A DNA stretch of 64,000 nucleotides. Origin: Actinomycetospora endophytica. Lineage in GTDB: Bacteria > Actinomycetota > Actinomycetes > Mycobacteriales > Pseudonocardiaceae. The position numbers were made by a program, and so were the translations under genes. The stretch spans positions 1-64,000 of the forward strand of contig NZ_JAJNDB010000005.1 of NCBI RefSeq assembly GCF_021026375.1, written 5' to 3'. The notes beneath the pieces are model-generated. The model ran no database searches. It saw nothing but the letters and a program-made list of their open reading frames with translations, and was not told the DNA's origin. Of this stretch, positions 27,636 through 49,143 are shown piece by piece; the stretch's first letter is position 1, and every line of letters starts with the position of its first letter.

Positions 27636-27707
27636 TGGGCGCGGCAGGATTCGAACCTGCGACCGACGGCTTGTAAGGCCGGTGCTCTTCCGCTGAGCTA
27701 CGCGCCC
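27636..27707 (-). tRNA. tRNA-Val (anticodon UAC)
   Basis: On the minus strand a full cloverleaf can be drawn. The acceptor stem is GGGCGCG/CGCGCCC, the D-arm GCTC...GAGC, the anticodon loop CTTACAA with UAC at positions 34-36, and the T-arm GCAGG TTCGAAT CCTGC; the discriminator is A. The anticodon stem CCGGC/GCCGT has one mismatch at 27-43. CCA is not encoded. The 3' end points left, towards the accessory region. Confidence 0.93.
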
Positions 27708-37592: not shown

Positions 37593-39056
37593 ATGACCGC
37601 CCTCGACTCCCGTCCCCCGACCCTGACGGCCGAGGCCCCGCCGTCGCTGCCCGCCCCGGAGGAGCTCGACCCGCGCTCGCCGTACGTCCGGGGCGCCGCC
37701 CTGGTCGAGGAGGGCACGTTCTCGCCGCTGCGCCCGCCGGACTCCTCGGGCGCGATGGCCGCCCACGGCCGGATCAACGGCTCCCGGGTGGTCGTCTACA
37801 TCACCGACGGCTCGGTGATGGGCGGGGCGATGGGCTCGGAAGGCTGCGGGCACATCGTGGAGGCCATCGACACCGCGCTGCGGCTGCGCTGCCCGGTGAT
37901 CGGGCTCTGGCACTCGGGCGGTGCCCGCCTGGCGGAGGGTGTGCAGGCGCTCGACGCGGTCGGGCAGGTCTTCGCCGCGATGGTGCGGGCGTCCGGTCGC
38001 GTGCCGCAGATCTCGGTGGTGCTCGGGCCGGCCGCGGGGGGTGCCGCCTACGGGCCGGCGCTGACCGACCTCGTGATCATGGCGCCGCAGGGCCGGGTGT
38101 TCGTGACCGGCCCCGACGTCGTGCGCTCGGTGACCGGCGAGACCGTCGACGCCGAGGGCCTGGGCGGTCAGGACGCGCACGGGAAGCGCTCCGGCGTGGT
38201 GCACGTGCTGGCCGACTCCGAGGCCGACGCCATGGCCCGGGCGCGCCGGCTGACCGGCCTGTTCTCGACGCCGGGCTCCTTCGACGTGCGCTCGACGCGC
38301 TCCTCGGACCTGCGCTCGCTGCTGCCCGAAGCCAAGAAGCGCGCCTACGACGTGCACCCGCTGCTGCGCGAGCTCCTCGACCCGGTTCCGGAGGGCGAGT
38401 CGCCGTTCGAGGAGCTGCAGGCCCGGTACGCGCCGAACATCGTGACCGGGTTCGGGCGGCTGGGTGGCCGGTCGGTCGGCGTGATCGCGAACAACCCGCT
38501 GCGGTTGGGCGGCTGCCTGGACTCGCCGTCGGCGGAGAAGGCCGCGCGGTTCGTGCGGCTCTGCGACGCGTTCGGGATCCCGCTCGTAGTGGTCGTCGAC
38601 GTGCCCGGCTACCTGCCGGGGGTCGGCCAGGAGTGGGACGGGGTCGTGCGCCGCGGGGCGAAGCTGCTGCACGCCTTCGCCGAGGCGACCGTGCCCCGCG
38701 TGACCCTGGTGACCCGCAAGTCCTTCGGCGGGGCGTACATCGCGATGAACTCCCGGTCGCTGGGCGCGACCGCGGTGTTCGCCTGGCCGGAGGCCGAGGT
38801 CGCCGTCATGGGCGCGAAGGCCGCCGTCGGGATCCTCAACCGCAAGCAGCTCGCGGCCGCCCCGGAGGACGAGCGCGAGGCGCTGCACACCGAGCTGGCC
38901 GAGGAGCACGAGCGGACCGCGGGCGGGGTGAACCGCGCGCTGGACATCGGCGTGGTCGACGAGATCATCGACCCGGCGCAGTCCCGGGCCCGCCTCGTGG
39001 ACGCCCTGGCCGGTGCGCCGGCGGGGCGGGGGCATCACGGGAACATCCCGTTGTAG
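37593..39056 (+). CDS. accD6: Acyl-CoA carboxylase carboxyltransferase beta subunit (AccD6-like)
   Basis: 487 residues with the N- and C-terminal carboxyltransferase folds. LWHSGGARLAEGVQALDAVG and GPAAGGAAYGPALTDLVIM form the acyl-CoA site; VVVVDVPGYLPGVGQEW and TRKSFGGAYIAMNSRSLGAT form the carboxybiotin side. It makes malonyl-CoA (or methylmalonyl-CoA) with a biotinylated alpha subunit encoded elsewhere. ATG 37593 has GAGGAG upstream. The position after fabF matches mycobacterial accD6. The stop codon abuts the first palindromic repeat. Confidence 0.9.
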   Translation: MTALDSRPPTLTAEAPPSLPAPEELDPRSPYVRGAALVEEGTFSPLRPPDSSGAMAAHGRINGSRVVVYITDGSVMGGAMGSEGCGHIVEAIDTALRLRCPVIGLWHSGGARLAEGVQALDAVGQVFAAMVRASGRVPQISVVLGPAAGGAAYGPALTDLVIMAPQGRVFVTGPDVVRSVTGETVDAEGLGGQDAHGKRSGVVHVLADSEADAMARARRLTGLFSTPGSFDVRSTRSSDLRSLLPEAKKRAYDVHPLLRELLDPVPEGESPFEELQARYAPNIVTGFGRLGGRSVGVIANNPLRLGGCLDSPSAEKAARFVRLCDAFGIPLVVVVDVPGYLPGVGQEWDGVVRRGAKLLHAFAEATVPRVTLVTRKSFGGAYIAMNSRSLGATAVFAWPEAEVAVMGAKAAVGILNRKQLAAAPEDEREALHTELAEEHERTAGGVNRALDIGVVDEIIDPAQSRARLVDALAGAPAGRGHHGNIPL

Positions 39057-39128
39057 GTGCGCTGCGCGCACGTGAGCACTAATTGACGCTATAGCGTCAA
39101 TTAGTGCTCACAAGCGCGAAGCGCACCT
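39055..39128. repeat. Palindromic repeat copy 1 (40-bp perfect core, 74 bp with outer arms)
   Basis: The core 39072-39111 is a perfect palindrome: 20 bp reading GTGAGCACTAATTGACGCTA followed by its exact reverse complement. Outer arms AGGTGCGCTgCGCG (from 39055) and CGCGaAGCGCACCT (to 39128) continue the dyad. It begins at the last two bases of the accD6 stop codon. Related cores lie at 40114 and 47569. It may act as a bidirectional terminator or be a REP-like element. Confidence 0.95.
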
Positions 39129-39130
39129 TG

Positions 39131-40117
39131 ATGGAGCCGATCGCCCTTCGGCTACGTCCAACCCATGTGGACGACTCAGAAGCATGGCAACGGCTGATTC
39201 GCGATCAGGGACCCGTCGCGAGTACCGAGCAGATCCTCGCGCACGAGATGACCTTCGCCGAGATCAGGGCGAACGTGCGCGCGAAGCGCTGGATCCCGAT
39301 GCTCCACGGCGTGTACGCGCTGGTGACGGGCGAACCGACGCCGGAGATGTGGCGCCGGGCGGCGTTGCTGTTCATCCGCGGCCCAGCAGTGCTGAGCCAT
39401 GCGACCGCCGCGGCGGTGCTGAAGCTCCCGGGCGGCAGCGACAAGGGCCCGCTCCACGTGACGGTGCCCTACGGATCTTCCGCGCGCGGCTGCGCCCAGG
39501 TGATCGTGCATCGCAGCCGCGCCTTCGAGCACCTCGCCCTGCGGGGCACCGACCCGCCGGTCACCAGCAAGGCCCACACCCTGGTCGACCTCGCCGTGGA
39601 GGCGCCGAGCGCCCGCGAGGCGATGCGCCTCCTCACTGCCGGCGCGACCCAGGCCCATGTGCCCGGCGAGCGTGTCCGGGCTGCCCTGGAGGTCCGTCGT
39701 CCGCGCCGCTACCGCCGGGCACTGGTGGCTGCGGCGAAGCTGCTCGTCGACGGCGTGGAGTCGGTGCTCGAGGCCTGGTACGCCGACGACGTCGAGCTCG
39801 CGCACGGCCTGCCGATCGGCACCCGTCAGGTCGCCCGGATCGTCGAGGGACGCCGCCGGGCGGAGGACATCGAGTACCCGATGCCCTGCGGGGTGCTCAC
39901 CGTGCGCCTCGACGGCTGGCGCACCCACGCGAACCGTCGTACCGCTCGCGTCGACCGGGCGCGCGACAACGCGGCCGAGCTCGAAGGACGGGCCCGTCTG
40001 ACCTTCGGGTACGAGGAGGTGAAGGACGCCTCGTGCGCCGTCGCCGCGGCCGTCGCGACCCGCCTGCGCCAGCTCGGCTGGGAGGGCGAGTTCATCCGGT
40101 GCACTGCGTGCCTGTGA
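39131..40117 (+). CDS. AbiEi-antitoxin-like / DUF559-type protein
   Basis: About 328 residues from ATG 39131 (the frame is open to 39104 inside the palindrome). The N-terminal part (STEQILAHEMTFAEIRANVR, AKRWIPMLHGVYALVTGEPT, AVLSHATAAAVLKLPG) has the winged-helix layout of AbiEi-type antitoxin domains common in actinobacteria, and THANRRTARVDRARDNAAEL with LTFGYEEVKDASCAVAAAVA near the end is like the endonuclease-fold half of these proteins. No AbiEii toxin gene is adjacent. It is bracketed by palindrome copies 1 and 2, and copy 2 supplies its stop codon. Confidence 0.65.
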   Translation: MEPIALRLRPTHVDDSEAWQRLIRDQGPVASTEQILAHEMTFAEIRANVRAKRWIPMLHGVYALVTGEPTPEMWRRAALLFIRGPAVLSHATAAAVLKLPGGSDKGPLHVTVPYGSSARGCAQVIVHRSRAFEHLALRGTDPPVTSKAHTLVDLAVEAPSAREAMRLLTAGATQAHVPGERVRAALEVRRPRRYRRALVAAAKLLVDGVESVLEAWYADDVELAHGLPIGTRQVARIVEGRRRAEDIEYPMPCGVLTVRLDGWRTHANRRTARVDRARDNAAELEGRARLTFGYEEVKDASCAVAAAVATRLRQLGWEGEFIRCTACL

Positions 40118-40153
40118 GCACTAATTGACGCTATGACGTCAATTAGTGCTCAC
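40114..40153. repeat. Palindromic repeat copy 2
   Basis: 40 bp with the same 20-bp left half as copy 1, GTGAGCACTAATTGACGCTA, and a right half differing only at two central bases (TGACG instead of TAGCG). GAGCGCGAAGCGCACC follows, as in copy 1. The left end GTGA contains the TGA stop (40115-40117) of the AbiEi-like gene. It sits between convergent genes. Confidence 0.95.
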
Positions 40154-40171
40154 GAGCGCGAAGCGCACCTA

Positions 40172-40780
40172 CTAACAGGGCGTCCGCAACGAGCTCCCCG
40201 CCATCGGGTCGACGATGCGCAGCGACCCGCGCTCGGTGACCACGCTCGTCGACACCTGCCAGCAGAGCCGCGACACGGGCACGTCCTGGGGCGCCGCCGC
40301 CGGGTCCTGGGTGGTGATCATCCCCATCGGGATCACGTACTCGCCGTCCCCCACGGGGTCGATCCGCCGCAGGATCACCGATCCCACCTTGACCGTCCGG
40401 TTGCGGTCGGCGAACTGCGCGGCGGAGACCGAGGCGGCCGAGGTGGCGGACGACGTCGCGACCCAGGCCCCGTAGTTCCCCGAGTTCCGGGCGTCGACCT
40501 GGCGCTGGACGAGGTCGCGGATCTCGGCCGACCGGGGTGATTCGGCCGCCGTCGGCGTGAGCGTCACGGTGGGCGGGCCCGCGGACCCGTCGTCGGGCAG
40601 CGTCACGCCGGCGAGCGCCGGGCCGGTGTCGCCGAGGGCGTCCCGCGCGGTCCCGGCCGCCCGGCCGGCGAGCCCCGCCGCGACCGCACCGAGCACGACG
40701 AGCACCACGACGAGCGCGATCGGGACGGTCACCGCGGGCCGGATGAGCGACGCCCACCGGCCGCTCCGGGCCCGTGTCAC
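40172..40780 (-). CDS. Membrane-anchored hypothetical protein (Mce-associated-like layout)
   Basis: About 202 residues from GTG 40780. A short basic N-terminus (TRARSGRWASLIRP) is followed by one membrane helix (VTVPIALVVVLVVLGAVAAG), a Pro/Thr-rich linker, and an exported domain with SAEIRDLVQRQVDARNSGNY, SAASVSAAQFADRNRTVKVG and two Cys (RLCW and the C-terminal TPC). The layout resembles single-pass actinobacterial proteins with an NTF2-like outer domain; no firm family. A start at 40888 would overlap the upstream DUF3145 gene. Confidence 0.55.
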   Translation of the reverse strand: MTRARSGRWASLIRPAVTVPIALVVVLVVLGAVAAGLAGRAAGTARDALGDTGPALAGVTLPDDGSAGPPTVTLTPTAAESPRSAEIRDLVQRQVDARNSGNYGAWVATSSATSAASVSAAQFADRNRTVKVGSVILRRIDPVGDGEYVIPMGMITTQDPAAAPQDVPVSRLCWQVSTSVVTERGSLRIVDPMAGSSLRTPC

Positions 40781-40847
40781 CCCGGGAGTCGGATCGACGC
40801 GTGTGACATGGCAATCACTCTGCCAGCCCGCGGGGCGGCCGTGGCGC

Positions 40848-41345
40848 TCAGCCCACCTGGTGGAGCCAGCCGACCGCCGCGCCGTCACCCGCGTAGCGGT
40901 ACGGCTCGAGGGCGTCGTCCCACCGACGGCCGAGGAGCTCGTCGAGACCGTGGTAGAGCGCGTCGCGACCGTCCCGGCGCGCCGAGGCCATCGCCGCGCG
41001 CAGCTGGTCCTCGCCGAGCACCACGTCGCCGTTCGCGCTGGTCCGGCCGTGCCAGAGCCCGAGGCCGGGGACGTGGCTGAAGCGCTCGCCGTCGGTACCG
41101 GGACTGGGCTCCTCGGTGACCTCGAAGCGGAGCATGCCCCAGGCGCGCAGCGCGCTCGCCAGGCGTGCGCCGCTACCGACCGGGCCGGTCCACGAGCACT
41201 CGGCCCTCATCTGGCCCGGGGCCGCGTCCTGCGCGGTCCAGTCCAGCACGACACGGGCGTCGAGGACGCCCGAGATGGCCCACTCGACGTGCGGATTGAC
41301 CGCAGGCGGCGACGAGTGGACGTAGACCACGCCACGGGTGCTCAC
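40848..41345 (-). CDS. DUF3145-family protein
   Basis: 165 residues matching actinobacterial DUF3145 along the whole length: STRGVVYVHSSPPAVNPHVE at the N-terminus, RAECSWTGPVGSGARLASAL, RFEVTEEPSPGTDGERFSHV, and the C-terminal ALEPYRYAGDGAAVGWL. Function unknown. The family is often found beside the FAS-II genes, as here, which hints at a lipid-related role. Confidence 0.9.
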   Translation of the reverse strand: MSTRGVVYVHSSPPAVNPHVEWAISGVLDARVVLDWTAQDAAPGQMRAECSWTGPVGSGARLASALRAWGMLRFEVTEEPSPGTDGERFSHVPGLGLWHGRTSANGDVVLGEDQLRAAMASARRDGRDALYHGLDELLGRRWDDALEPYRYAGDGAAVGWLHQVG

Positions 41346-41543
41346 TGCTGACCTCCGGTCGAGACGAGAAGCGTCTTCCCCAACGTCCTCGTGTCGTCCG
41401 CGGCGCGGTGATCAACCGTAGCGGTGTCGCGGAGGAGTGTGCCCGGTGAGACCCCTGGTGCGCCAGTGGTCCTGCGTGTTCGGCGTGTCGCGTGCCCGGA
41501 AACCGTCGACCGGCGGGACCCGGTCGCCTAACGTCATCGGACG

Positions 41544-42866
41544 ATGACGGAGGGCGACAGTCAGGAGGAGGAGCAGGGTCCCGACGACGAGCGCCCCGCC
41601 TCGTTCCGAGACGCCCTCGCCGTCGCCCCGTTCCGGCGACTGTGGGCGGGACAACTGCTCTCGATCCTGGGCGACCAGGTCGCCCGCGTCGCGCTGACCG
41701 TCCTCGTCTTCGACCGCACCTCGTCCGCGGCCCTCACCGCGCTGACCTACGCGCTGACGTTCCTGCCCGACCTCGTCGCCGGCCCGCTGCTCTCCGGGCT
41801 CGCGGACCGTTTCCCGCGACGGGCCACGATGGTCGTCACCGACGTGGCGCGAGCGGTGCTCGTCGCGGTGATGGCCGTGCCCGGGATGCCGCTCACGGCC
41901 CTGGCCACCCTGCTGGTCGCCGTCCAGATGCTCGCGGCGCCGTTCCTGGCCGCGCGGTCGGCGATCCTGCCGCACCTGCTCGACGGCGACCGCTACGTCG
42001 CCGGGTCGGCGGTCATCGGCACGACCTACCAGTCCGCCCAGGTCCTCGGCTTCGCCCTGGGCGGCCCGCTCGTGACGGCGCTCGGGACCTCCCCCGCGCT
42101 CGGCGTGGACGCGGCGACCTTCGTCGTCTCGGCCCTGGTGCTGCGGTTCGGACTGCCCGAGCACCGCGCGGACGGCACGACGACGGCGGGCCCCGGCCTG
42201 CGCGGGTGGGCGGCGGAGGCCCGGGCGGCGGTCGCGCGGATCGGCGAGGGCGCCCGGATCGTGGGCGGCGACGCCCGGCTGCGGTCGCTGATCGTGCTCG
42301 CGTGCGTGTCGGCCTTCGTGGTCACCGTCGAGGGGCTGGCCGCCCCGTACGCGGCCGAGCTCGGGGCCGGGACCGTGGCGGTGGGCGTGCTGCTCGCCGC
42401 GAACCCGCTCGGGGCGGCGACGGGGATCGTGGCGCTCACCCGGCTCGCGGCGCCGGCGACGCGGGTGCGCCTGCTCGGACCGCTCGCGGTGGGGTCGTGC
42501 GTCCCGCTGGTGGCGTCCGCGCTCGACCCGCCGCTGCCCGTGGTGATCGCGCTGTGGGTGGTCTCCGGGCTGTGCTGCGCCTATCAGATCCCGGCGAACG
42601 CGGCGTTCGTCACGGCGGTGCCCGACGCCCACCGCGGACAGGCGTTCGGCCTCGCGGTGACGGCGCTGCGGGTCACCCAGGGGCTCGGGGTCCTCGTGTC
42701 CGGCGTCGTCGCGCAGGAGACCTCGCCGTCCGGGGCGGTCGCGATCAGCGGCGCCGTCGGGGTCGTCGTCGCGCTGGGGGCCGCCCGGGCCTGGGCCCGC
42801 GCCCGCGACCGCGCGGCCGACGAGGCGCCCCCGGAGACGACGACGGGCACCTCCGACGCCGCGTGA
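41544..42866 (+). CDS. Major facilitator superfamily transporter
   Basis: A 440-residue membrane protein with about 12 hydrophobic spans after a 30-residue acidic N-terminus. MFS markers are FRRLWAGQLLSILGDQVARV in TM1 and the loop 2-3 motif GLADRFPRRATMVVTD. It belongs to the MFS_3/enterobactin-exporter-like group that often exports small metabolites or drugs. Substrate unknown. The tiny Trp-repeat gene lies convergent, 35 bp after its stop. Confidence 0.88.
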   Translation: MTEGDSQEEEQGPDDERPASFRDALAVAPFRRLWAGQLLSILGDQVARVALTVLVFDRTSSAALTALTYALTFLPDLVAGPLLSGLADRFPRRATMVVTDVARAVLVAVMAVPGMPLTALATLLVAVQMLAAPFLAARSAILPHLLDGDRYVAGSAVIGTTYQSAQVLGFALGGPLVTALGTSPALGVDAATFVVSALVLRFGLPEHRADGTTTAGPGLRGWAAEARAAVARIGEGARIVGGDARLRSLIVLACVSAFVVTVEGLAAPYAAELGAGTVAVGVLLAANPLGAATGIVALTRLAAPATRVRLLGPLAVGSCVPLVASALDPPLPVVIALWVVSGLCCAYQIPANAAFVTAVPDAHRGQAFGLAVTALRVTQGLGVLVSGVVAQETSPSGAVAISGAVGVVVALGAARAWARARDRAADEAPPETTTGTSDAA

Positions 42867-42901
42867 GCGGCGCCCGGGAGGTGCCCGGTCGTCGGGGTCG
42901 G

Positions 42902-43012
42902 TCAGCGCCAGTGCGCGTCCCGCCAGTGCGCGTCGCGCGCCCAGTTGGAGTCGTCGGGCCGGGTCGACGGCGAGGCGATGCGGGCCCAGTTCGAGTCGGA
43001 CGTGGTGCGCAT
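42902..43012 (-). CDS. 36-residue Trp-repeat peptide
   Basis: ATG 43012 is preceded by a consensus AAGGAG (43024-43019) at 6 nt spacing, the best ribosome binding site in this part of the window. The peptide contains DSNWAR twice and ends with DAHWR twice in tandem; it is rich in Trp, Asp, Arg and Ser and has no Cys or hydrophobic stretch. No family was recognised. It could be a precursor peptide, a small regulatory protein or a translated leader. Neighbours are the MFS gene (convergent) and the GGDEF gene (divergent). Confidence 0.6.
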   Translation of the reverse strand: MRTTSDSNWARIASPSTRPDDSNWARDAHWRDAHWR

Positions 43013-43288
43013 GGGGTGCTCCTTCGTGGTGATGTTCCGGTCCGTGTCCGTGCCCGAGGTCACCGAGCCCGCTCGGACCGTCCCCGTCAGGGGAGATGTG
43101 TCACTCCGCGTGAGAACTGGAAGGGCGGAACGAGTGGCCGACTCGATCACCCTCTGCGGTTGGACGACTCCAGCCTGACAAGGGTGGCCCTCGGTCACCA
43201 GAGAGCGACTGGGCGTCAACCATCCAGGTGAGAAGCCACGAAAGGGTGATCCATTCGACCCCGTCCCCGTGGCTCGGGGTACCGTTTG

Positions 43289-44713
43289 ATGACCGTCCTG
43301 GCGGACGAAACCGACAGGAGCGGAGGGCTCCGCCCGGCGATCAGGACACTGTCAACGGCCGATTCCAGGCCTCGGAGGCTGCAGAACGTGACCGCTCCCG
43401 GTGCGCGGCCGACGGGCTCGACGCCCGGGCCGCCCGCGCGCACCGAGCAGTCGCCCGGGCGGCTCGCCACCGTCTCCCCCGGCCGCTGGACCCTCTGGTC
43501 GCTGCCCCGGCCGGCCCTGGTCTACGTCCTCGCGGTCGATCTCGCGGCGGTCGCGGTGATCGTCGCGGCGTTCGTCTGGCGCCCCGTCACCGGCCGCGAC
43601 TGGCTCGTCGCGGGGCTGCTCTTCCTGGGCGCCGCGGTGCACGCCGAGGCCGCCCGGCACATCGAGCGGATCCGGATCACCCGCAACGACCGGCCCTTCA
43701 TCGACCTCAAGTCGATGTGGACCTTCGCCGGGCTGCTGCTGATCCACCTCGGGCCCACGCTGATGCTGGTCACCGCGACGTTCGCCTACTGGTGGATACG
43801 CAACGAGCAACGACCGGCGCCCCACCGGTGGACGTTCTCCTGGGCCACGGTGGTGCTCGGGACGAGCGCGGCCTCGCTGGTCCTGCTCGGCATCGACAAG
43901 AGCACACTGCTCACCGCCGCCGCCGGGCCGCAGGGGCTGGTCCTCATCGCCCTGGCCGCGCTGGTGCGCTGGACGGTCAACCACGGCCTCGTCGTCGGGA
44001 TCATCCTGCTGATCTCGCCGTCGCCGTCCGTGCGGCGCCACCTCGCGAGCCCGTCGGACACGCTGCTCGGGCTGGGCGCGCTGGCCCTGGGCGCGGCGCT
44101 CGCGGTCCTGGCCGCGGCGTCGCCGTGGCTCGTGCCGATCCTGCTGGTCCCGGTGATCATGCTGCACCGCGGCGTGCTCGTGGACCAGTTCCGGCAGGCG
44201 GCCCGGACCGACCCGAAGACCGGGCTGGCCAACGGGGCCGCCTGGTCCGAGATGGCCGAGAAGGAGATCGCGCGGACCCGCCGGCTCGGCACCGGTCTCG
44301 CGGTGCTCATGGTCGACCTGGACAACTTCAAGGCCGTCAACGACGCCCACGGCCACCTGGCGGGCGACGAGGTGCTGCGCGCGGTGGCCGCCGCGCTGTC
44401 CGCCGAGGTCCGCGGGTACGACGCGGTGGGTCGCTTCGGCGGCGAGGAGTTCGTCGTCCTGCTCTCGGGAGTCGACACCGCGTCCGCGGCGCTGACCGCC
44501 GACCGGCTGCGGGCCCGGATCGGGGCCCTCGACGTCACGGTGGACGCCCCGGGCGGCACGTCGCGGATCCGGGGTCTCACCGCCTCCGTCGGGTGCGTCG
44601 CCAGCCCGAAGGCGGCGGGCACCGTCGACGAACTGGTGGGCGCCGCCGACAGCGCGCTCTACGAGGCGAAGCGGGCGGGGCGCGACCGCGTGGTCACCGC
44701 CCCGCCGGCCTGA
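43289..44713 (+). CDS. Membrane diguanylate cyclase (GGDEF domain)
   Basis: 474 residues. After a Pro-rich N-terminus there are about six or seven membrane spans (LVYVLAVDLAAVAVIVAAFV, WLVAGLLFLGAAVHAEAARH, MWTFAGLLLIHLGPTLMLVT and others). A C-terminal GGDEF domain follows: TDPKTGLANGAAWSEMAEKE, the active site GGEEF at 384-388 in AVGRFGGEEFVVLL, and an inhibitory-site RGYD at 375-378 five residues before it. It should make cyclic di-GMP with product inhibition. ATG 43289 is preferred over the adjoining TTG 43286. Confidence 0.9.
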   Translation: MTVLADETDRSGGLRPAIRTLSTADSRPRRLQNVTAPGARPTGSTPGPPARTEQSPGRLATVSPGRWTLWSLPRPALVYVLAVDLAAVAVIVAAFVWRPVTGRDWLVAGLLFLGAAVHAEAARHIERIRITRNDRPFIDLKSMWTFAGLLLIHLGPTLMLVTATFAYWWIRNEQRPAPHRWTFSWATVVLGTSAASLVLLGIDKSTLLTAAAGPQGLVLIALAALVRWTVNHGLVVGIILLISPSPSVRRHLASPSDTLLGLGALALGAALAVLAAASPWLVPILLVPVIMLHRGVLVDQFRQAARTDPKTGLANGAAWSEMAEKEIARTRRLGTGLAVLMVDLDNFKAVNDAHGHLAGDEVLRAVAAALSAEVRGYDAVGRFGGEEFVVLLSGVDTASAALTADRLRARIGALDVTVDAPGGTSRIRGLTASVGCVASPKAAGTVDELVGAADSALYEAKRAGRDRVVTAPPA

Positions 44714-44733
44714 CGCCCGTCAGACCACCGGCC

Positions 44734-45909
44734 TCAGCGGAACGCGGCGAGCCCGGTCAGGGCCTGTCCGATCGAGAGCGCGTGCATCTCCTCGGTGCCC
44801 TCGTAGGTCAGCACCGTCTCGAGGTTCGTCATGTGCCGGAACACCGGGTACTCGAGGGTGATCCCGTTGCCGCCGAGCACGGTGCGCGCGGTGCGGGCGA
44901 CGTCGAGCGCGGCGCGGACGTTGGCCATCTTCCCGAAGCTCACCTGCGAGGGGTGCAGCTCGTGGGCGTCCTTGAGGCGGCCGATGCGGGCGGCGGTGAG
45001 GTCGGCCTGGTTCACGGCGACGACCATGTCCGCGAGCTTGCGCTGGGTGAGCTGGAACCCGGCGATCGGCTTGTCGAACTGCTCCCGGTCGAGCGCGTAG
45101 GACAGCGCGGCCTCGAAGCACGAGCGGGCCGCCCCGACCGCGCCCCACAGGATCCCGTAGCGCGCCTCGTTCAGGCACGACAGCGGGCCCTTGAGGCCGC
45201 TGACCTCGGGGAACATCGCGTCGGCGGGCAGCCGCACGCCGTCGAGCACCAGCTCGGCGGTGAGCGAGGCGCGCAGCGAGAGCTTGTGCTTGACCTCGTT
45301 CGCGCTGAACCCGGGGGTGTCGGTGGGCACGACGAAGCCGCGGATCCCCTTCGAGCCCGCGTCCGGGTCGGTCTGGGCCCACACGACGGCGACGTCGGCC
45401 AGGGTCCCGTTGGTGATCCACATCTTGGAGCCGTCGAGGACCCAGTCGTCGCCGTCGCGGCGGGCGCGGGTGCGCATCGAGCCGGGGTCGGACCCGGCGT
45501 CGGGCTCGGTCAGCCCGAAGCAGCCGAGCGCGTCGCCCGTGGCCATCCGGGGCAGCCACTGCTGCTTGTGCTCCTCGGTGCCCCAGCGGTGGATCGCGAA
45601 CATGGCGAGCGAGCCCTGGACGCTGACGAACGACCGCAGCCCGGAGTCGACGGCCTCGAGCTCGCGGCAGGCCAGCCCGTACGACGTGGCATTGGTCCCC
45701 GCGCACCCGTAGCCCTCGAGGTGCATGCCGAGCAGGCCGAGCGCGCCGAGGCCCTTCGCGATGTCCCGCGGGAGGGTGTTGGACTCGTACCAGTCGGCGA
45801 TGCGCGGGGCGAGCTCGGCGTTCGCGTAGTCCCGCACCGCGTCGCGGATGTCGCGCTCCTCGGCGGACAGCTCGGCGTCGACGGCGAGGAAGTCAGAGGG
45901 GTCCGGCAT
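44734..45909 (-). CDS. gcdH: Glutaryl-CoA dehydrogenase-like acyl-CoA dehydrogenase
   Basis: A 391-residue FAD acyl-CoA dehydrogenase. The segments YGLACRELEAVDSGLRSFVS, GCFGLTEPDAGSDPGSM, SKMWITNGTLADVAVVWAQT and ARTVLGGNGITLEYPVFRHM, and the catalytic E370 in TYEGTEEMHAL, follow the glutaryl-CoA dehydrogenase subgroup. It would oxidise and decarboxylate glutaryl-CoA from lysine or tryptophan breakdown. ATG 45909. No other genes of that pathway are near. It is convergent with the GGDEF gene, 20 bp apart. Confidence 0.85.
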   Translation of the reverse strand: MPDPSDFLAVDAELSAEERDIRDAVRDYANAELAPRIADWYESNTLPRDIAKGLGALGLLGMHLEGYGCAGTNATSYGLACRELEAVDSGLRSFVSVQGSLAMFAIHRWGTEEHKQQWLPRMATGDALGCFGLTEPDAGSDPGSMRTRARRDGDDWVLDGSKMWITNGTLADVAVVWAQTDPDAGSKGIRGFVVPTDTPGFSANEVKHKLSLRASLTAELVLDGVRLPADAMFPEVSGLKGPLSCLNEARYGILWGAVGAARSCFEAALSYALDREQFDKPIAGFQLTQRKLADMVVAVNQADLTAARIGRLKDAHELHPSQVSFGKMANVRAALDVARTARTVLGGNGITLEYPVFRHMTNLETVLTYEGTEEMHALSIGQALTGLAAFR

Positions 45910-45941
45910 GGTCCCCACGGTAGGGCCTCGTGGCCGAACGG

Positions 45942-46412
45942 TCAGTGCACCGGAGCGTGAGGTCCGTGCCAGAAACCGGCGAACCCGGGGTGCAGATCGA
46001 GGGCGTCGACCTCGCCCAGCGGCACCCACCGCAGCTCGGTCGCCTCGCCGTCGGTGGGCTCCAGGTCCGGGGGCGGGACGGTCAGCCCGCCGTGCACCGT
46101 CGTGTAGGACCAGCCGCCGTGGTCGTCCACCGTCTCGTCGGTCACGACGACGACGGCGGCCTCCAGTCCGGTCTCCTCCCCCGCCTCCCGCAGCGCGGTG
46201 TCGCGGGCGGTCTCGGCGCTGTCGCGGGCCCCGCCGGGGATGCCCCAGGTGCCGCCGTGATGGCTCCAGAACACCCGATGGGCGAGCAGCACGCGGTCGT
46301 CGGCGGTGACGAGGAGACCCGCCGCGCCGAAGCGCCCCCAGTGCCGGTGACCCTGCGCGCAGTGCACCCAACCGTCGCCGTTGGTACCCCGGTCCTCGTC
46401 GCGCGCCGCCAC
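45942..46412 (-). CDS. NUDIX hydrolase
   Basis: 156 residues from GTG 46412. The NUDIX box is complete: GGARDSAETARDTALREAGE followed by ETGL. VHCAQGHRHWGRFGAAGLLV precedes it and the C-terminus ends FAGFWHGPHAPVH. It hydrolyses a nucleoside diphosphate linked to another moiety; substrate unknown. It lies 32 bp upstream of the gcdH start on the same strand and is divergent from the YbdK-type ligase gene. Confidence 0.85.
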   Translation of the reverse strand: MAARDEDRGTNGDGWVHCAQGHRHWGRFGAAGLLVTADDRVLLAHRVFWSHHGGTWGIPGGARDSAETARDTALREAGEETGLEAAVVVVTDETVDDHGGWSYTTVHGGLTVPPPDLEPTDGEATELRWVPLGEVDALDLHPGFAGFWHGPHAPVH

Positions 46413-46431
46413 CCCACGATGATCCCTGGTC

Positions 46432-47553
46432 GTGGAACCCGGTGCTCGCCGCCTCGGCGTGGAGGAGGAACTGCTGCTCGTCGACCCCGACGACGGGCGC
46501 CCGCTCGGGCTCTCGGGCGCGGTCCGCGACACCGGCGAGGCCGGTGACGAGCTCGACGGCGAGATGCGCGCCGAGCAGGTCGAGACCGGCAGCACGCCCC
46601 ACCACGAGGCGGACGCCCTCGCGGCGGACCTCGTCGCCCGCCGTCGCACGGCCCTCGACGCCGCGGGGACCCAGGGCGCCGTCGTCGCGGGGCTCGCCAC
46701 CTCCCCCGTCGCTCCCGACCCGCTCGCCCCGCCGCCCGGGCGGTACGGCCGCATCCTCGAGCGCTTCGGCCCGATCGCCTCCGAACAGCTGACCAATGGC
46801 CAGCACGTGCACGTGGAGATCGCCTCGCGGGAGGAGGGGGTGGGCGTGCTCGACCGGATCGGGCCCTGGCTCCCCGTGCTCCGGGCGCTCTCGGCCAACT
46901 CGCCGTTCTGGCGCGACGACGACACCAACCACGCCAGCTACCGCTCGCTGGTGTGGAACCGGTGGCCCTCCGCCGGCCCCACCCCGGTGTTCGGGAGCCC
47001 CGCCGCCTACGACGCGACCGTGGCCGCGATGATCGCCACCGGGACCGTGCTCGACGAGGGGATGGTCTACTTCGACGCCCGCCTGGCCGCGTCCTTCCCG
47101 ACGGTGGAGGTGCGGGTCGCCGACGTGGCGGGCGAGGTCGAGGAGGCCGTCGTCGTCGCGCTCCTGGCCCGGGCGCTGGTGGACACCGCGGCGCGCGCGT
47201 GGGCGGCCGGGGAACCGGCCCCGTCGTCGCCGGTCGAGGCGCTGCGGCTGGCGCACTGGCGCGCGGCCCGGTCGGGCTGCGTGCCGGGGCACGACGCCGA
47301 GGCCGGGGTGCTGGTCGACCCGCGCACGGGCCGGGCGTCCGGGGCGGACACCGTCGTCGCGGCGCTGCTCGAGCACGTGGACACGGCGCTCGGGGCCGAC
47401 CGGGAACGGGTGCGCGAGGGGTGTGCCCGCGTCCTGGCCGGCGGCACCGGGGCGGCGCACCAGCGGCGGGTGTTCGCCGACGCGGGCGGCCATGCCGGTG
47501 ACGGGGTGCGGGCGGTGGCGCTGGACGCGGCCGCCCGGTGCGCTCCGCGCTAG
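46432..47553 (+). CDS. Glutamate-cysteine ligase 2-type (YbdK) carboxylate-amine ligase
   Basis: 373 residues from GTG 46432. The YbdK/GCS2 signature RLGVEEELLLVDPDDGRPLG opens the fold, followed by MRAEQVETGSTPHH, TNGQHVHVEIASREEGVGVL and FPTVEVRVADVAGEVEEAVV. It joins a carboxylate to an amine using ATP; the E. coli relative has weak gamma-glutamylcysteine ligase activity. Actinobacteria use mycothiol, so the substrate here is open. The TAG stop is directly followed by the third palindromic repeat. Confidence 0.85.
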   Translation: MEPGARRLGVEEELLLVDPDDGRPLGLSGAVRDTGEAGDELDGEMRAEQVETGSTPHHEADALAADLVARRRTALDAAGTQGAVVAGLATSPVAPDPLAPPPGRYGRILERFGPIASEQLTNGQHVHVEIASREEGVGVLDRIGPWLPVLRALSANSPFWRDDDTNHASYRSLVWNRWPSAGPTPVFGSPAAYDATVAAMIATGTVLDEGMVYFDARLAASFPTVEVRVADVAGEVEEAVVVALLARALVDTAARAWAAGEPAPSSPVEALRLAHWRAARSGCVPGHDAEAGVLVDPRTGRASGADTVVAALLEHVDTALGADRERVREGCARVLAGGTGAAHQRRVFADAGGHAGDGVRAVALDAAARCAPR

Positions 47554-47568
47554 GTGCGCTGCGCGCCT

Positions 47569-47608
47569 GTGAGCAGTAATTGACCCTATAGCGTCAATTA
47601 CTGCTCAC
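47569..47608. repeat. Palindromic repeat copy 3
   Basis: 40 bp: GTGAGCAGTAATTGACCCTA followed by TAGCGTCAATTACTGCTCAC. The arms match each other except for one position and differ from copies 1 and 2 by a compensated C-G swap (GCAGTAA/TTACTGC instead of GCACTAA/TTAGTGC). It is preceded by TAGGTGCGCTGCGCGC, as copy 1 is. It supplies the TGA stop of the minus-strand SDR gene and sits between convergent genes. Confidence 0.95.
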
Positions 47609-49143
47609 AGGCCGGAGGCACCTCCGACGATCCCCCGCGCCATCGACGGGAACACCAACGGCGCCCCGACTCGCAGCGCCGTGCCGTAGGCGACTCCCCC
47701 GAGCCCCGACGGCCGGAACCCGACCTCGATCTCCAGCCGCGCACCCTCGCCCTGCGGCACCACCGTGAAGCTCAGCCACAGCCGCCCGGGCACTCGCAGG
47801 TCGGCCCGCAGGCGCAGCATCCGCTCCGGCTCGATCGCCTCCACCCGCCAGGCGTCCACCACGTCCCCGACGACGAGGTCCCGCCCGTGCGGCCGCCCGC
47901 GGTAGGCCCCGACCCCGCCGAGCAGCTGATCGGCCCAGCCCAGCGCGGTGAACACCCCCGGCGGCGTGTACCACCCGGTGTCGCCGCCGAGACGCTGCAG
48001 CGAGCCCCACACCGCCCGCGCCGACGCTCGCGAGTCCGCCCGCGTCGTCCACCGCCAGGTCGCCCCGCCCGACCCCGCCGGGTCGGTGGCCAGCGCGAGG
48101 GCCGCCGGCCGCGCGACCGCGTCGGCCCACGACGCCTCTGCCGCCTCGGTCGCCGAGAGCCCGTCGCCGGAGGCCGACGAGGACGGTGCCGGGTCGCGCT
48201 CCTCCGGATCGGATCCGTCCCGGCGGCGTCCCAGCGCGGCGCGCACCGCCGCGTCGTAGGTCGTCGGTCCGTCCGGCGGCGGCCCCATCAGGGCGGTCGC
48301 GGCGGCGAAGGAGTCGTCGCACACGAGCTCGTGGCGCAGCGACTCGACCAGCGGCTCCACCAGCGCGCGGGGCAACGGGGAGAGCAGCTCCATCGCGGCC
48401 GCGGCCACGGTGGGTCCGCCGGGTGGGACGGGCACCGGCAGCGGGACCGCGATCCGCTGCGGCAGGCCGGCGATGCGCGCGTAGCGCTGCACGAGGTCGA
48501 GGTAGGTGATCACGTCGGGCCCGCCGACGTCGAACGCCCGGTCCACCTCGGCGGGCAACTCGGTGGCCGCGGTCAGGTAGTGCAGGACGTCGTCGACGGC
48601 GATCGGCTGGGTGCGGTGGTGCAGCCAGCTGATCGCGGGCAGGACCGGCACCCGCTCGGCCAGGTAGCGGATCATCTCGAAGCTCGCGGACCCGGAGCCC
48701 ACGACGATGGACGCCTCGAGCGCCGCCGTCGGGACCGCCGAGGCGAGGAAGATGTCCGCCACCTCGGCCCGGGAGGCCAGGTGGCGCGAGGCGTCGCCGT
48801 CGTCCGGGCGCAGGCCGCCGAGGTAGACCAGCCGGCCCACGCCCGCGCCGGCGGCGGCGCCCGCCACCGCCTCGGCGGCGGCCCGGTCGCGCTCCGGGAA
48901 GTCCGAGCGGCCGAGGGCGTGCGCGAGGTGGATGACGACGTCGGCGCCCTCGACGAGCCGCGTCAGCGCGGCCGGATCCCCGCCGAGCTCGCCGGGGACG
49001 ACGTCGACCCGGTCGGCCCAGGCGCACAGCGCGAGCTTGTCGGGCGAGCGGATCAGGACGGTGACCTCGTCACCGCGCGCGAGCAGGCGGGGGACGAGCC
49101 GGGTCCCCAGGTAGCCGGTGGATCCGATGACGGCACAGCGCAC
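47605..49143 (-). CDS. SDR/NmrA-type oxidoreductase with DUF2867 domain
   Basis: A 512-residue two-domain protein. The N-terminal atypical SDR (MRCAVIGSTGYLGTRLVPRL, GADVVIHLAHALGRSDFPER) runs to about residue 310. The C-terminal DUF2867 domain covers about 330-512 (WRWTTRADSRASARAVWGSL, LDVGDVVDAWRV-type strand VVGDVVDAWRVEAIEPERML, RLEIEVGFRPSGLGGVAYGT). This fusion is common in actinobacteria; function unknown, perhaps quinone or lipid-related. Its stop lies within palindrome copy 3. Confidence 0.88.
   Translation of the reverse strand: MRCAVIGSTGYLGTRLVPRLLARGDEVTVLIRSPDKLALCAWADRVDVVPGELGGDPAALTRLVEGADVVIHLAHALGRSDFPERDRAAAEAVAGAAAGAGVGRLVYLGGLRPDDGDASRHLASRAEVADIFLASAVPTAALEASIVVGSGSASFEMIRYLAERVPVLPAISWLHHRTQPIAVDDVLHYLTAATELPAEVDRAFDVGGPDVITYLDLVQRYARIAGLPQRIAVPLPVPVPPGGPTVAAAAMELLSPLPRALVEPLVESLRHELVCDDSFAAATALMGPPPDGPTTYDAAVRAALGRRRDGSDPEERDPAPSSSASGDGLSATEAAEASWADAVARPAALALATDPAGSGGATWRWTTRADSRASARAVWGSLQRLGGDTGWYTPPGVFTALGWADQLLGGVGAYRGRPHGRDLVVGDVVDAWRVEAIEPERMLRLRADLRVPGRLWLSFTVVPQGEGARLEIEVGFRPSGLGGVAYGTALRVGAPLVFPSMARGIVGGASGL

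What the first reader, a model, noticed from the sequence alone, without database searches (positions are those of the whole stretch)
39055..47608. Family of three 40-bp palindromes that end neighbouring genes
Copies at 39072-39111 (perfect), 40114-40153 (two central mismatches) and 47569-47608 (one mismatch) share the half-site GTGAGCAnTAATTGACGCTA. Copy 3 differs from the others by a compensated swap (GCAGTAA/TTACTGC versus GCACTAA/TTAGTGC), so the hairpin or dyad is conserved rather than the bare sequence. Copies 1 and 3 follow a TAG stop directly (TAGGTGCGCTGCGCGC). Copies 2 and 3 supply a TGA stop through their GTGAG end. All sit at gene 3' ends, two of them between convergent genes. This looks like a REP-type repeat or a spreading bidirectional terminator family that I cannot match to a known one.
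Basis: seen in the sequence. Interest (0 to 1): 0.75.

Follow-up and report, generated by a model that had tools for sequence, protein, structure and literature searches.

The report
Three-hairpin repeats capping Actinomycetospora genes
These bacteria carry many short three-hairpin DNA repeats that sit at the ends of genes, usually supply the stop signal, stay in place between related species and yet have had their central sequence swapped to a species-specific version; they look like the known REP repeats but lack the enzyme that moves REPs.

Summary
The three palindromes belong to a repeat of about 72-76 bp: edge AGGTG, a 3-5 bp mini-hairpin, 2 nt, a 40-bp palindrome, 2 nt, mini-hairpin, CACCT. 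The window's genome holds 183 exact GTGAGCA-N26-TGCTCAC copies (reversed control 0); 18 of 18 sampled genomes of the genus (Actinomycetospora) hold 2-183, and 144 genomes of other Pseudonocardiaceae genera hold 0-2 each. In 2.2 Mb, 109 of 124 gene ends facing an element stop inside it, 75 on a TAG exactly at its edge. Positions are inherited between species but cores are not: 0 of 13 sites shared with a close relative keep the same core. Segments between elements are inverted or missing in that relative, so elements seem to recombine. Mini-hairpin loops read T-N-C (324 of 355), which on the other strand is GNA, an extra-stable DNA mini-hairpin loop. G.U pairs show no excess over A.C mismatches and there is no U-tract, so folded DNA may matter more than an RNA terminator. 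The Y1 (RAYT) transposase domain was found in 0 of 18 genomes. Best reading: a REP-like gene-end repeat homogenised by recombination; enzyme and function are unproven.

The parts
39055..39128 (.). Copy 1, whole element AGGTG...CACCT (left arm GCGC-TGC-GCGC, 40-bp palindrome, right arm GCGC-GAA-GCGC)
39072..39111 (.). Copy 1, 40-bp perfect palindrome, core ATTGACGC
39054..39056 (+). TAG stop of the upstream gene at the edge of copy 1 (AG lies inside the element)
40097..40170 (.). Copy 2, whole element (left edge CGGTG, left arm GCAC-TGC-GTGC with a compensated A-T pair)
40114..40153 (.). Copy 2, 40-bp palindrome, 18/20 pairs
40115..40117 (+). TGA stop of gene 39248-40117 supplied by the GTGAG end of copy 2
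40169..40174 (-). Two TAG codons in tandem at the right edge of copy 2; the outer one (40172-40174) ends the minus-strand gene 40172-40732, the inner one is the element's edge
47552..47623 (.). Copy 3, whole element (right arm is a 3-bp stem)
47569..47608 (.). Copy 3, 40-bp palindrome, 19/20 pairs, outer swap GCAGTAA/TTACTGC
47551..47553 (+). TAG stop of gene 46459-47553 at the edge of copy 3
47605..47607 (-). TGA stop of minus-strand gene 47605-49143 inside copy 3
37593..39056 (+). Gene ended by copy 1; 94% identical ortholog in G155 (acyl-CoA carboxylase beta-like is a recalled name, not from a search)
39248..40117 (+). Gene between copies 1 and 2; the segment is inverted in G155
40172..40732 (-). 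Convergent gene that stops 3 nt outside the edge of copy 2
46459..47553 (+). Gene ended by copy 3
47605..49143 (-). Convergent gene ended by copy 3; its 3' end was compared across the genus

Best explanation
A genus-specific, non-coding, REP-like DNA repeat with a three-hairpin fold acts as gene-end punctuation. It closes reading frames with its own TAG/TGA/TAA codons and probably marks or helps the end of transcription from both sides. Its positions are largely inherited, while its palindromic core is repeatedly overwritten from other copies by recombination (gene conversion or strand switching at folded DNA), which makes the cores species-specific. Shown: anatomy, copy number, restriction to the genus within the genomes sampled, stop-codon supply, gene-end placement, inherited position with no detectable memory in the core, rearrangements bounded by elements, loop signature, no Y1 transposase domain. 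Inferred: that recombination between copies does the overwriting, and that the folded single strand (cruciform) is the substrate. Not shown: any effect on transcription or translation, and any enzyme.
For: Copies: 183 exact in the own genome, 0 in the reversed control. Spacing: 45 matches with 26 inner bases, 0-2 for every other spacing from 10 to 59. Three-hairpin fold: arms pair locally in 649 of 656 cells but across in 490 of 656 (82 elements); 8 pairs with changes on both sides against a shuffled mean of 3.7, 5 against 4.5 for one long stem. Placement in own 864 kb plus G155 1.33 Mb: 49 convergent, 31 tandem, 3 divergent of 83, background 372/1254/369. Stops: 75 TAG at the edge and 34 deeper inside, of 124 gene ends; TAG is 373 of 2000 stops overall. 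Shared sites: 13 of 23 own sites, corresponding to 10 distinct G155 elements, all with another core. Ortholog core identity 0.577, random cross pairs 0.546, paralogs 0.66 and 0.68. Rearrangements: a ~1 kb inversion between copies 1 and 2; ~5.2 kb between own C9:430574 and C9:435739 is replaced by one element in G155, likewise C9:404303 and C9:404792. Loops T-N-C in 324 of 355 against T..C in 183 of 3997 control hairpins; PMC4686876 (passages) names GNA and GNNA loops as extraordinarily stable DNA mini-hairpins. G.T 34 versus A.C 39.
Against: No converting enzyme or event was observed; selection by a coevolving DNA-binding protein would also give species-specific cores. Arms show only weak orthologous memory (0.649 versus 0.613, p 0.06), so fixed arms with a converted core are not proven. 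The G.U contrast with control hairpins is not significant (Fisher p 0.073). Some core positions do not covary (position 16 own 0.56 against 0.51 expected; position 18 G155 0.38 against 0.42), and inner bases 13-17 are identical in both halves in only 24 of 48 own and 28 of 42 G155 elements. T-N-C loops could be shared ancestry rather than constraint, although they recur in the GTGCG class (11 of 15). AA/TT half-and-half hybrids were 0 of 90 in own plus G155, which frequent random crossing at the centre would not give; such hybrids do appear in the G042 and G118 listings.
Confidence: 0.5

Rival explanations
1. An ordinary bidirectional intrinsic terminator family selected as an RNA hairpin at gene ends; repeats arise by duplication and drift. 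A related RNA-level version is a hairpin next to the stop codon that stalls ribosomes and lowers expression, as reported for E. coli REPs within 15 nt of the stop (PMC12306157, passages).
For: Gene-end and convergent placement; very strong RNA hairpins, -51 to -63 kcal/mol, z -9 to -13 in 8 folds of 4 elements; compensated changes; stops lie inside or at the element.
Against: No U-tract: T is 0-8% in 14 of the first 15 positions after the 40-mer and 27% in the other. No excess of G.T over A.C in the sense strand (34 versus 39, 89 elements), whereas PMC5381666 (abstract and passages) reports GU as the most frequent intermediate in Bacillus cereus terminators and local control hairpins give 49 versus 30 (the contrast itself has p 0.073). 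A terminator does not explain the fixed 40-bp length or the core turnover.
Confidence: 0.22
2. Binding sites of a coevolving DNA-binding or nucleoid protein that reads the palindromic core; the core shifts in all copies when the protein's specificity shifts.
For: Exact dyad, fixed spacing, near-invariant GTGAG ends, species-specific core with 0 of 13 shared sites alike.
Against: Several core classes coexist in one genome; several core positions covary within a genome beyond the consensus (positions 8-11: observed 0.75-1.0, expected 0.47-0.70); no reason for the loop signature of the arms or for stop-codon edges.
Confidence: 0.13
3. A REP/MITE-type non-autonomous mobile element, moved by an unidentified transposase that targets gene ends.
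For: Copy number; stop-codon supply like GTAG REPs (PMC3733652, passages); symmetric ends; orthologous sites without element, such as own C9:476461, where G155 has TGA at the same codon, and own C13 ~97100, where G155 has an element and own none.
Against: No Y1_Tnp in 18 of 18 genomes; no target duplication noticed at the few sites aligned; no longer element with a gene between two half-elements noticed in 2.2 Mb; positions often shared (13 of 23, against 66 of 1241 G155 genes with an element at their end) while cores differ, which transposition alone does not give.
Confidence: 0.15

Closest known systems
REP / BIME elements with GTAG tag (RAYT-associated), PMC3733652
   Same: Short palindromic repeats in high copy near gene ends, often supplying the TAG stop to flanking ORFs (passages read).
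   Different: Symmetric three-hairpin element with a 40-bp centre; edge AGGTG at both ends; no Y1 transposase domain in 18 of 18 genomes; species-specific core at inherited sites.
Rho-independent (intrinsic) bidirectional terminators
   Same: GC-rich hairpin at gene 3' ends, between convergent genes.
   Different: No U-tract, fixed length, no G.U preference, repeat family with homogenised core.
Inverted DNA-uptake-sequence terminators (PMC2267715, passage citing Kingsford 2007)
   Same: Repeated inverted words that may end genes as hairpins.
   Different: Different word, halves abutted, flanked by mini-hairpin arms; no link to uptake tested.
GNA/GNNA extraordinarily stable DNA mini-hairpins (PMC4686876, passages citing Hirao 1994 and Yoshizawa 1997)
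   Same: Arms read GCGC-GNA-GCGC or GCGC-GTCA-GCGC on one strand, C-G closed.
   Different: Described there as a chemical motif for aptamers, not as part of a genomic repeat.

Membership tests
REP/BIME (RAYT-mobilised) | Short palindromic repeat in many copies outside genes | tested here: met
   183 exact copies; 0 of 83 deep inside a called gene
REP/BIME (RAYT-mobilised) | GTAG (or CGTC) tetranucleotide tag at one end | tested here: not met
   Both ends are AGGTG; on sides without a gene end, A in 28 of 32 but TA in only 9 of 32
REP/BIME (RAYT-mobilised) | RAYT / Y1 tyrosine transposase gene in the genome | tested here: not met
   PF01797 in 0 of 18 genus genomes, control rings in 5 of 14 (own genome)
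REP/BIME (RAYT-mobilised) | Repeat ends supply stop codons (reported property, PMC3733652) | tested here: met
   109 of 124 gene ends
Intrinsic terminator | Stable hairpin just after the gene | tested here: met
Intrinsic terminator | U-tract after the hairpin | tested here: not met
   T fraction by position in 89 sense-known elements
Intrinsic terminator | Stops transcription | not testable with these tools
   no transcript data
MITE | Terminal inverted repeats | tested here: met
   whole element is symmetric
MITE | Target-site duplication and empty sites | tested here: inconclusive
   orthologous sites without element exist, no clear duplication seen by eye; direction of change unknown
MITE | Related autonomous element | tested here: inconclusive
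   none noticed in 2.2 Mb; whole genomes not scanned for it
Known Rfam RNA family | Match at the gathering score | tested here: not met
   only a tRNA in the window

The most novel reading that the evidence does not exclude
A self-homogenising DNA repeat whose folded single strand (40-bp hairpin flanked by two GNA/GNNA mini-hairpins) is the substrate of an unidentified, non-Y1 activity that copies a whole palindromic core from element to element at fixed gene ends, so that each species carries its own core signature at inherited sites.
Probability: 0.28. Interest if true: 0.82.

Novelty: new variant of a known kind. Interest (0 to 1): 0.62.

Why it matters
It offers a natural test of how short dispersed palindromes evolve in concert without a known transposase: in several species of the genus there are about 50-180 sites per genome, many shared between the two species compared, with diagnostic cores. 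It also bears on how genes acquire stop codons and C-termini from repeats, and on whether gene-end palindromes in actinomycetes act as DNA or as RNA.

Tried and rejected
Single long stem instead of three hairpins: rejected, because the arms hardly covary with each other (the covariation score of the long stem still exceeds most shuffles, 6 of 500, through the shared central part). RAYT-driven REP: rejected for this genus on the Pfam domain. Spread outside the genus: 74 of the 80 loci listed by the genome-contig scan are Actinomycetospora; the other 6 have only 2-6 of 13 inner pairs and look like coding DNA (ABC-transporter-like for some, by eye and recalled). A long element carrying a gene between two half-elements: none noticed; that list is mostly chance GTGAG words. 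Covariance-model count in the own genome: saturated at 150 scored of 6653 candidates, so not used as a count. Literature: listings of searches for palindromic, concerted, terminator and gyrase-linked repeats and two naming Actinomycetospora showed no title or abstract start that describes this family; the held PMC library only, and full texts were not read (passages of PMC3733652, PMC2267715, PMC12306157, PMC5381666 and PMC4686876 were).

Limits of my counts. Genes were called by a home-made caller, not by a standard program. One search kept only elements with a recognised AGGT-type arm: 42 of 48 own and 41 of 41 G155 40-mers with at least 14 pairs; of 129 gene 3' ends facing them, 5 without a recognised arm on that side were dropped, leaving 124. 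Of the 10 sites scored as without element, at least one runs off a contig end (C13:152005), one looks like a paralog hit (C9:529869, 73% identity, another contig), one holds a degenerate 40-mer (C13:436777) and one keeps remains of the arms only (C9:345246), so true losses or gains are fewer. The 13 shared own sites map to 10 distinct G155 elements, because in three cases two own elements flank a segment that is inverted or missing in G155; the permutation tests ignore this. Alignment A2 was a subset of 21 of 39 copies chosen for equal arm length. The control hairpins are all 4-bp stems with 3-nt loops in own C13:1-464000, while family arms may have 3-6 bp stems. The script had an off-by-one and was redone. 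My notebook (and others) holds one miscount, 11 genomes with 18-77 GTGAGCG copies; the answer shows 10. Searches asked for eleven and two stretches that do not exist.
Full report
Observation. Six half-sites are found in the window and none in 100 shuffles. The visible 40-mers are the middle of a longer symmetric element: AGGTG, mini-hairpin, 2 nt, 40-bp palindrome, 2 nt, mini-hairpin, CACCT.

Copy number and host. The window lies in a 6.98 Mb genome (17 contigs, 96.67% complete). It has 39 copies within two mismatches of TTGACGCTATAGCGTCAA, with none for the reversed word, and 183 exact GTGAGCA-N26-TGCTCAC copies. All 18 genomes held for the genus have this pattern (2-183). A sister form, GTGAGCG-N26-CGCTCAC, occurs in 13 of 18: 10 genomes with 18-77 copies and 3, the own genome among them, with 1-2. 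Among 150 genomes of the family from 46 genera, the 144 from other genera have 0-2 matches each (reversed control 0-1). A looser pattern that asks only for T-N-C loops, GTG..CAC and the 40-bp spacing gives 6-75 matches in 10 of 10 genus genomes and 0-3 in the other 190 (reversed control 0-5). A scan of named genomes lists Actinomycetospora for 74 of 80 loci; the 6 others are not palindromic inside. The relative G155 is Actinomycetospora sp. TBRC 11914: named loci of that strain are found letter for letter in it, and the genus belongs to Pseudonocardiaceae.

Anatomy. Spacing is strict: with up to one mismatch, 45 matches in 864 kb have 26 inner bases and every other spacing from 10 to 59 gives 0-2. 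Exceptions exist: a 39-nt and an enlarged element in G155 and a 41-bp palindrome in G158. The arms are local hairpins: 649 of 656 local pairs match against 490 of 656 for arm-to-arm pairing in the 82 of 228 elements with both arms in the 3-nt-loop register, and 60 of 66 non-GCGC arms are fully self-complementary (1000 shuffles: mean 36.6, maximum 44). On 21 copies the three-hairpin structure has 21 cells with changes on both sides against a shuffled mean of 5.0; one long stem has 11 against 8.2. Other classes share the 40-bp length and often the arms: of 261 palindromes GTG..CAC with at least 15 of 20 pairs in held DNA, 210 begin GTGAG, 21 GTGAA, 20 GTGCG and 10 otherwise.

Gene ends. In own 864 kb and G155 1.33 Mb, 83 armed elements lie 49 between convergent, 31 between tandem and 3 between divergent genes; all adjacent gene pairs give 372, 1254 and 369. 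None of the 83 lies deep inside a called gene. Of 124 gene 3' ends facing an element, 75 stop on a TAG whose T is just outside and whose AG is the element's edge, 34 stop further inside (29 TGA, 5 TAA), 9 stop within 30 nt before it and 6 elsewhere. TAG is 373 of 2000 stops overall. On sides that face no gene end the A of the edge is present in 28 of 32 but TA in only 9 of 32; on sides whose gene stops deeper inside, A is present in 21 of 34 and TA in 4 of 34. So AGGTG is the usual edge and the T is mostly supplied or kept by the gene. At own C9:476461, where G155 lacks the element, G155 has TGA at the same codon.

Comparison between species. In G155 the gene ends of the three window sites carry elements with another core, CTTTCTGGTG instead of CTAATTGACG. 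Of 86 own elements examined, 23 had a flank with an ortholog in the held G155 DNA and 13 of these have an element there (10 distinct G155 elements). None of the 13 has the same core. Elements end 66 of 1241 called G155 genes, so the sharing reflects inheritance of position. Core identity between orthologs (0.577) is like random cross-species pairs (0.546) and below paralogs (0.66, 0.68); 2 of 13 own cores are closer to their ortholog than to the mean own paralog, and shuffling partners gives p 0.87. Arms show only a weak excess (0.649 versus 0.613, p 0.06). The gene end at copy 3 was read in 15 further genus genomes: 8 have a 40-bp palindrome of another kind (5 begin GTGAGCG, 3 GTGCGTGA), 1 a 41-bp one, 1 a shorter imperfect one by eye, and 5 none.

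Recombination. The gene between copies 1 and 2 is inverted in G155. The 5.2 kb between own C9:430574 and C9:435739 is missing in G155, where one element stands at the junction, and the same holds for the 0.5 kb between C9:404303 and C9:404792. G155 also has an element with an enlarged centre that looks like two cores fused. No element of own or G155 joins an AA-class half to a TT-class half (0 of 90; 6 of 90 join AA to another type), so cores mostly switch as whole palindromes; at the same time inner bases 13-17 differ between halves in 24 of 48 own and 14 of 42 G155 elements. AA/TT hybrids do occur in listings of G042 and G118.

DNA or RNA. In 89 elements with a gene end on one side only, stem mismatches read in the transcribed strand are 34 G.T and 39 A.C (p 0.64); 129 other gene-end hairpins give 49 and 30 (p 0.042); the contrast between the two has p 0.073. 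PMC5381666 (abstract and passages) reports GU as the most frequent intermediate in Bacillus cereus terminators. There is no U-tract. Arm loops of 3 nt read T-N-C towards the 40-mer in 324 of 355, closed by C-G in 345 of 355, against T..C in 183 of 3997 control hairpins; 4-nt loops are T..C in 62 of 80. On the other strand these are GNA and GNNA, which PMC4686876 (passages) describes as extraordinarily stable DNA mini-hairpins. The letters also resemble an RNA UNCG loop, but the closing pair does not fit that register (inference). This points to selection or processing at the level of folded DNA; shared ancestry of the loops is the main alternative.

What it most likely is. A REP-like gene-end repeat with a three-hairpin fold, whose cores are homogenised by recombination. 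It fails two features that define RAYT-mobilised REPs, the tag and the transposase, so I do not file it as a REP, though it resembles one in form, number and stop-codon supply (PMC3733652, passages). Punctuation of transcription from both sides is likely from its placement but untested; an effect on translation next to the stop codon, as reported for E. coli REPs (PMC12306157, passages), is also open.

Noticed in passing
window 39128-40098 versus G155 C7:68464-69486: The roughly 1 kb segment between copies 1 and 2 is inverted relative to the close relative, with elements at both ends.
   Followed up: partly
own C9:430574-435739 (in L083): A 5.2 kb stretch bounded by two elements is absent in G155, where a single element marks the junction.
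   Followed up: partly
G155 C1 about 498984 (position 278984 of the joined stretch starting at 220001): An element with an enlarged centre that looks like two cores fused head to head.
   Followed up: no
own C13 about 110722 (outside the window): An unrelated hairpin AGGTGTGGCGC...GCGCCACACCT stands where G155 has a three-hairpin element.
   Followed up: no
own C13:119724, 170614, 417755; C9:357753, 393363, 511892: A second 40-bp class, GTGCGTG...CACGCAC, with mini-hairpin arms; in several cases a TGAC loop gives the TGA stop.
   Followed up: partly
own C13:139349, 254612, 280988: A third 40-bp palindrome type, GTGCGGCGGAAC...GTTCCGCCGCAC, mostly farther from called gene ends.
   Followed up: no
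window 27636-27707, minus strand: tRNA gene, the only Rfam match in the window at the gathering score.
   Followed up: no
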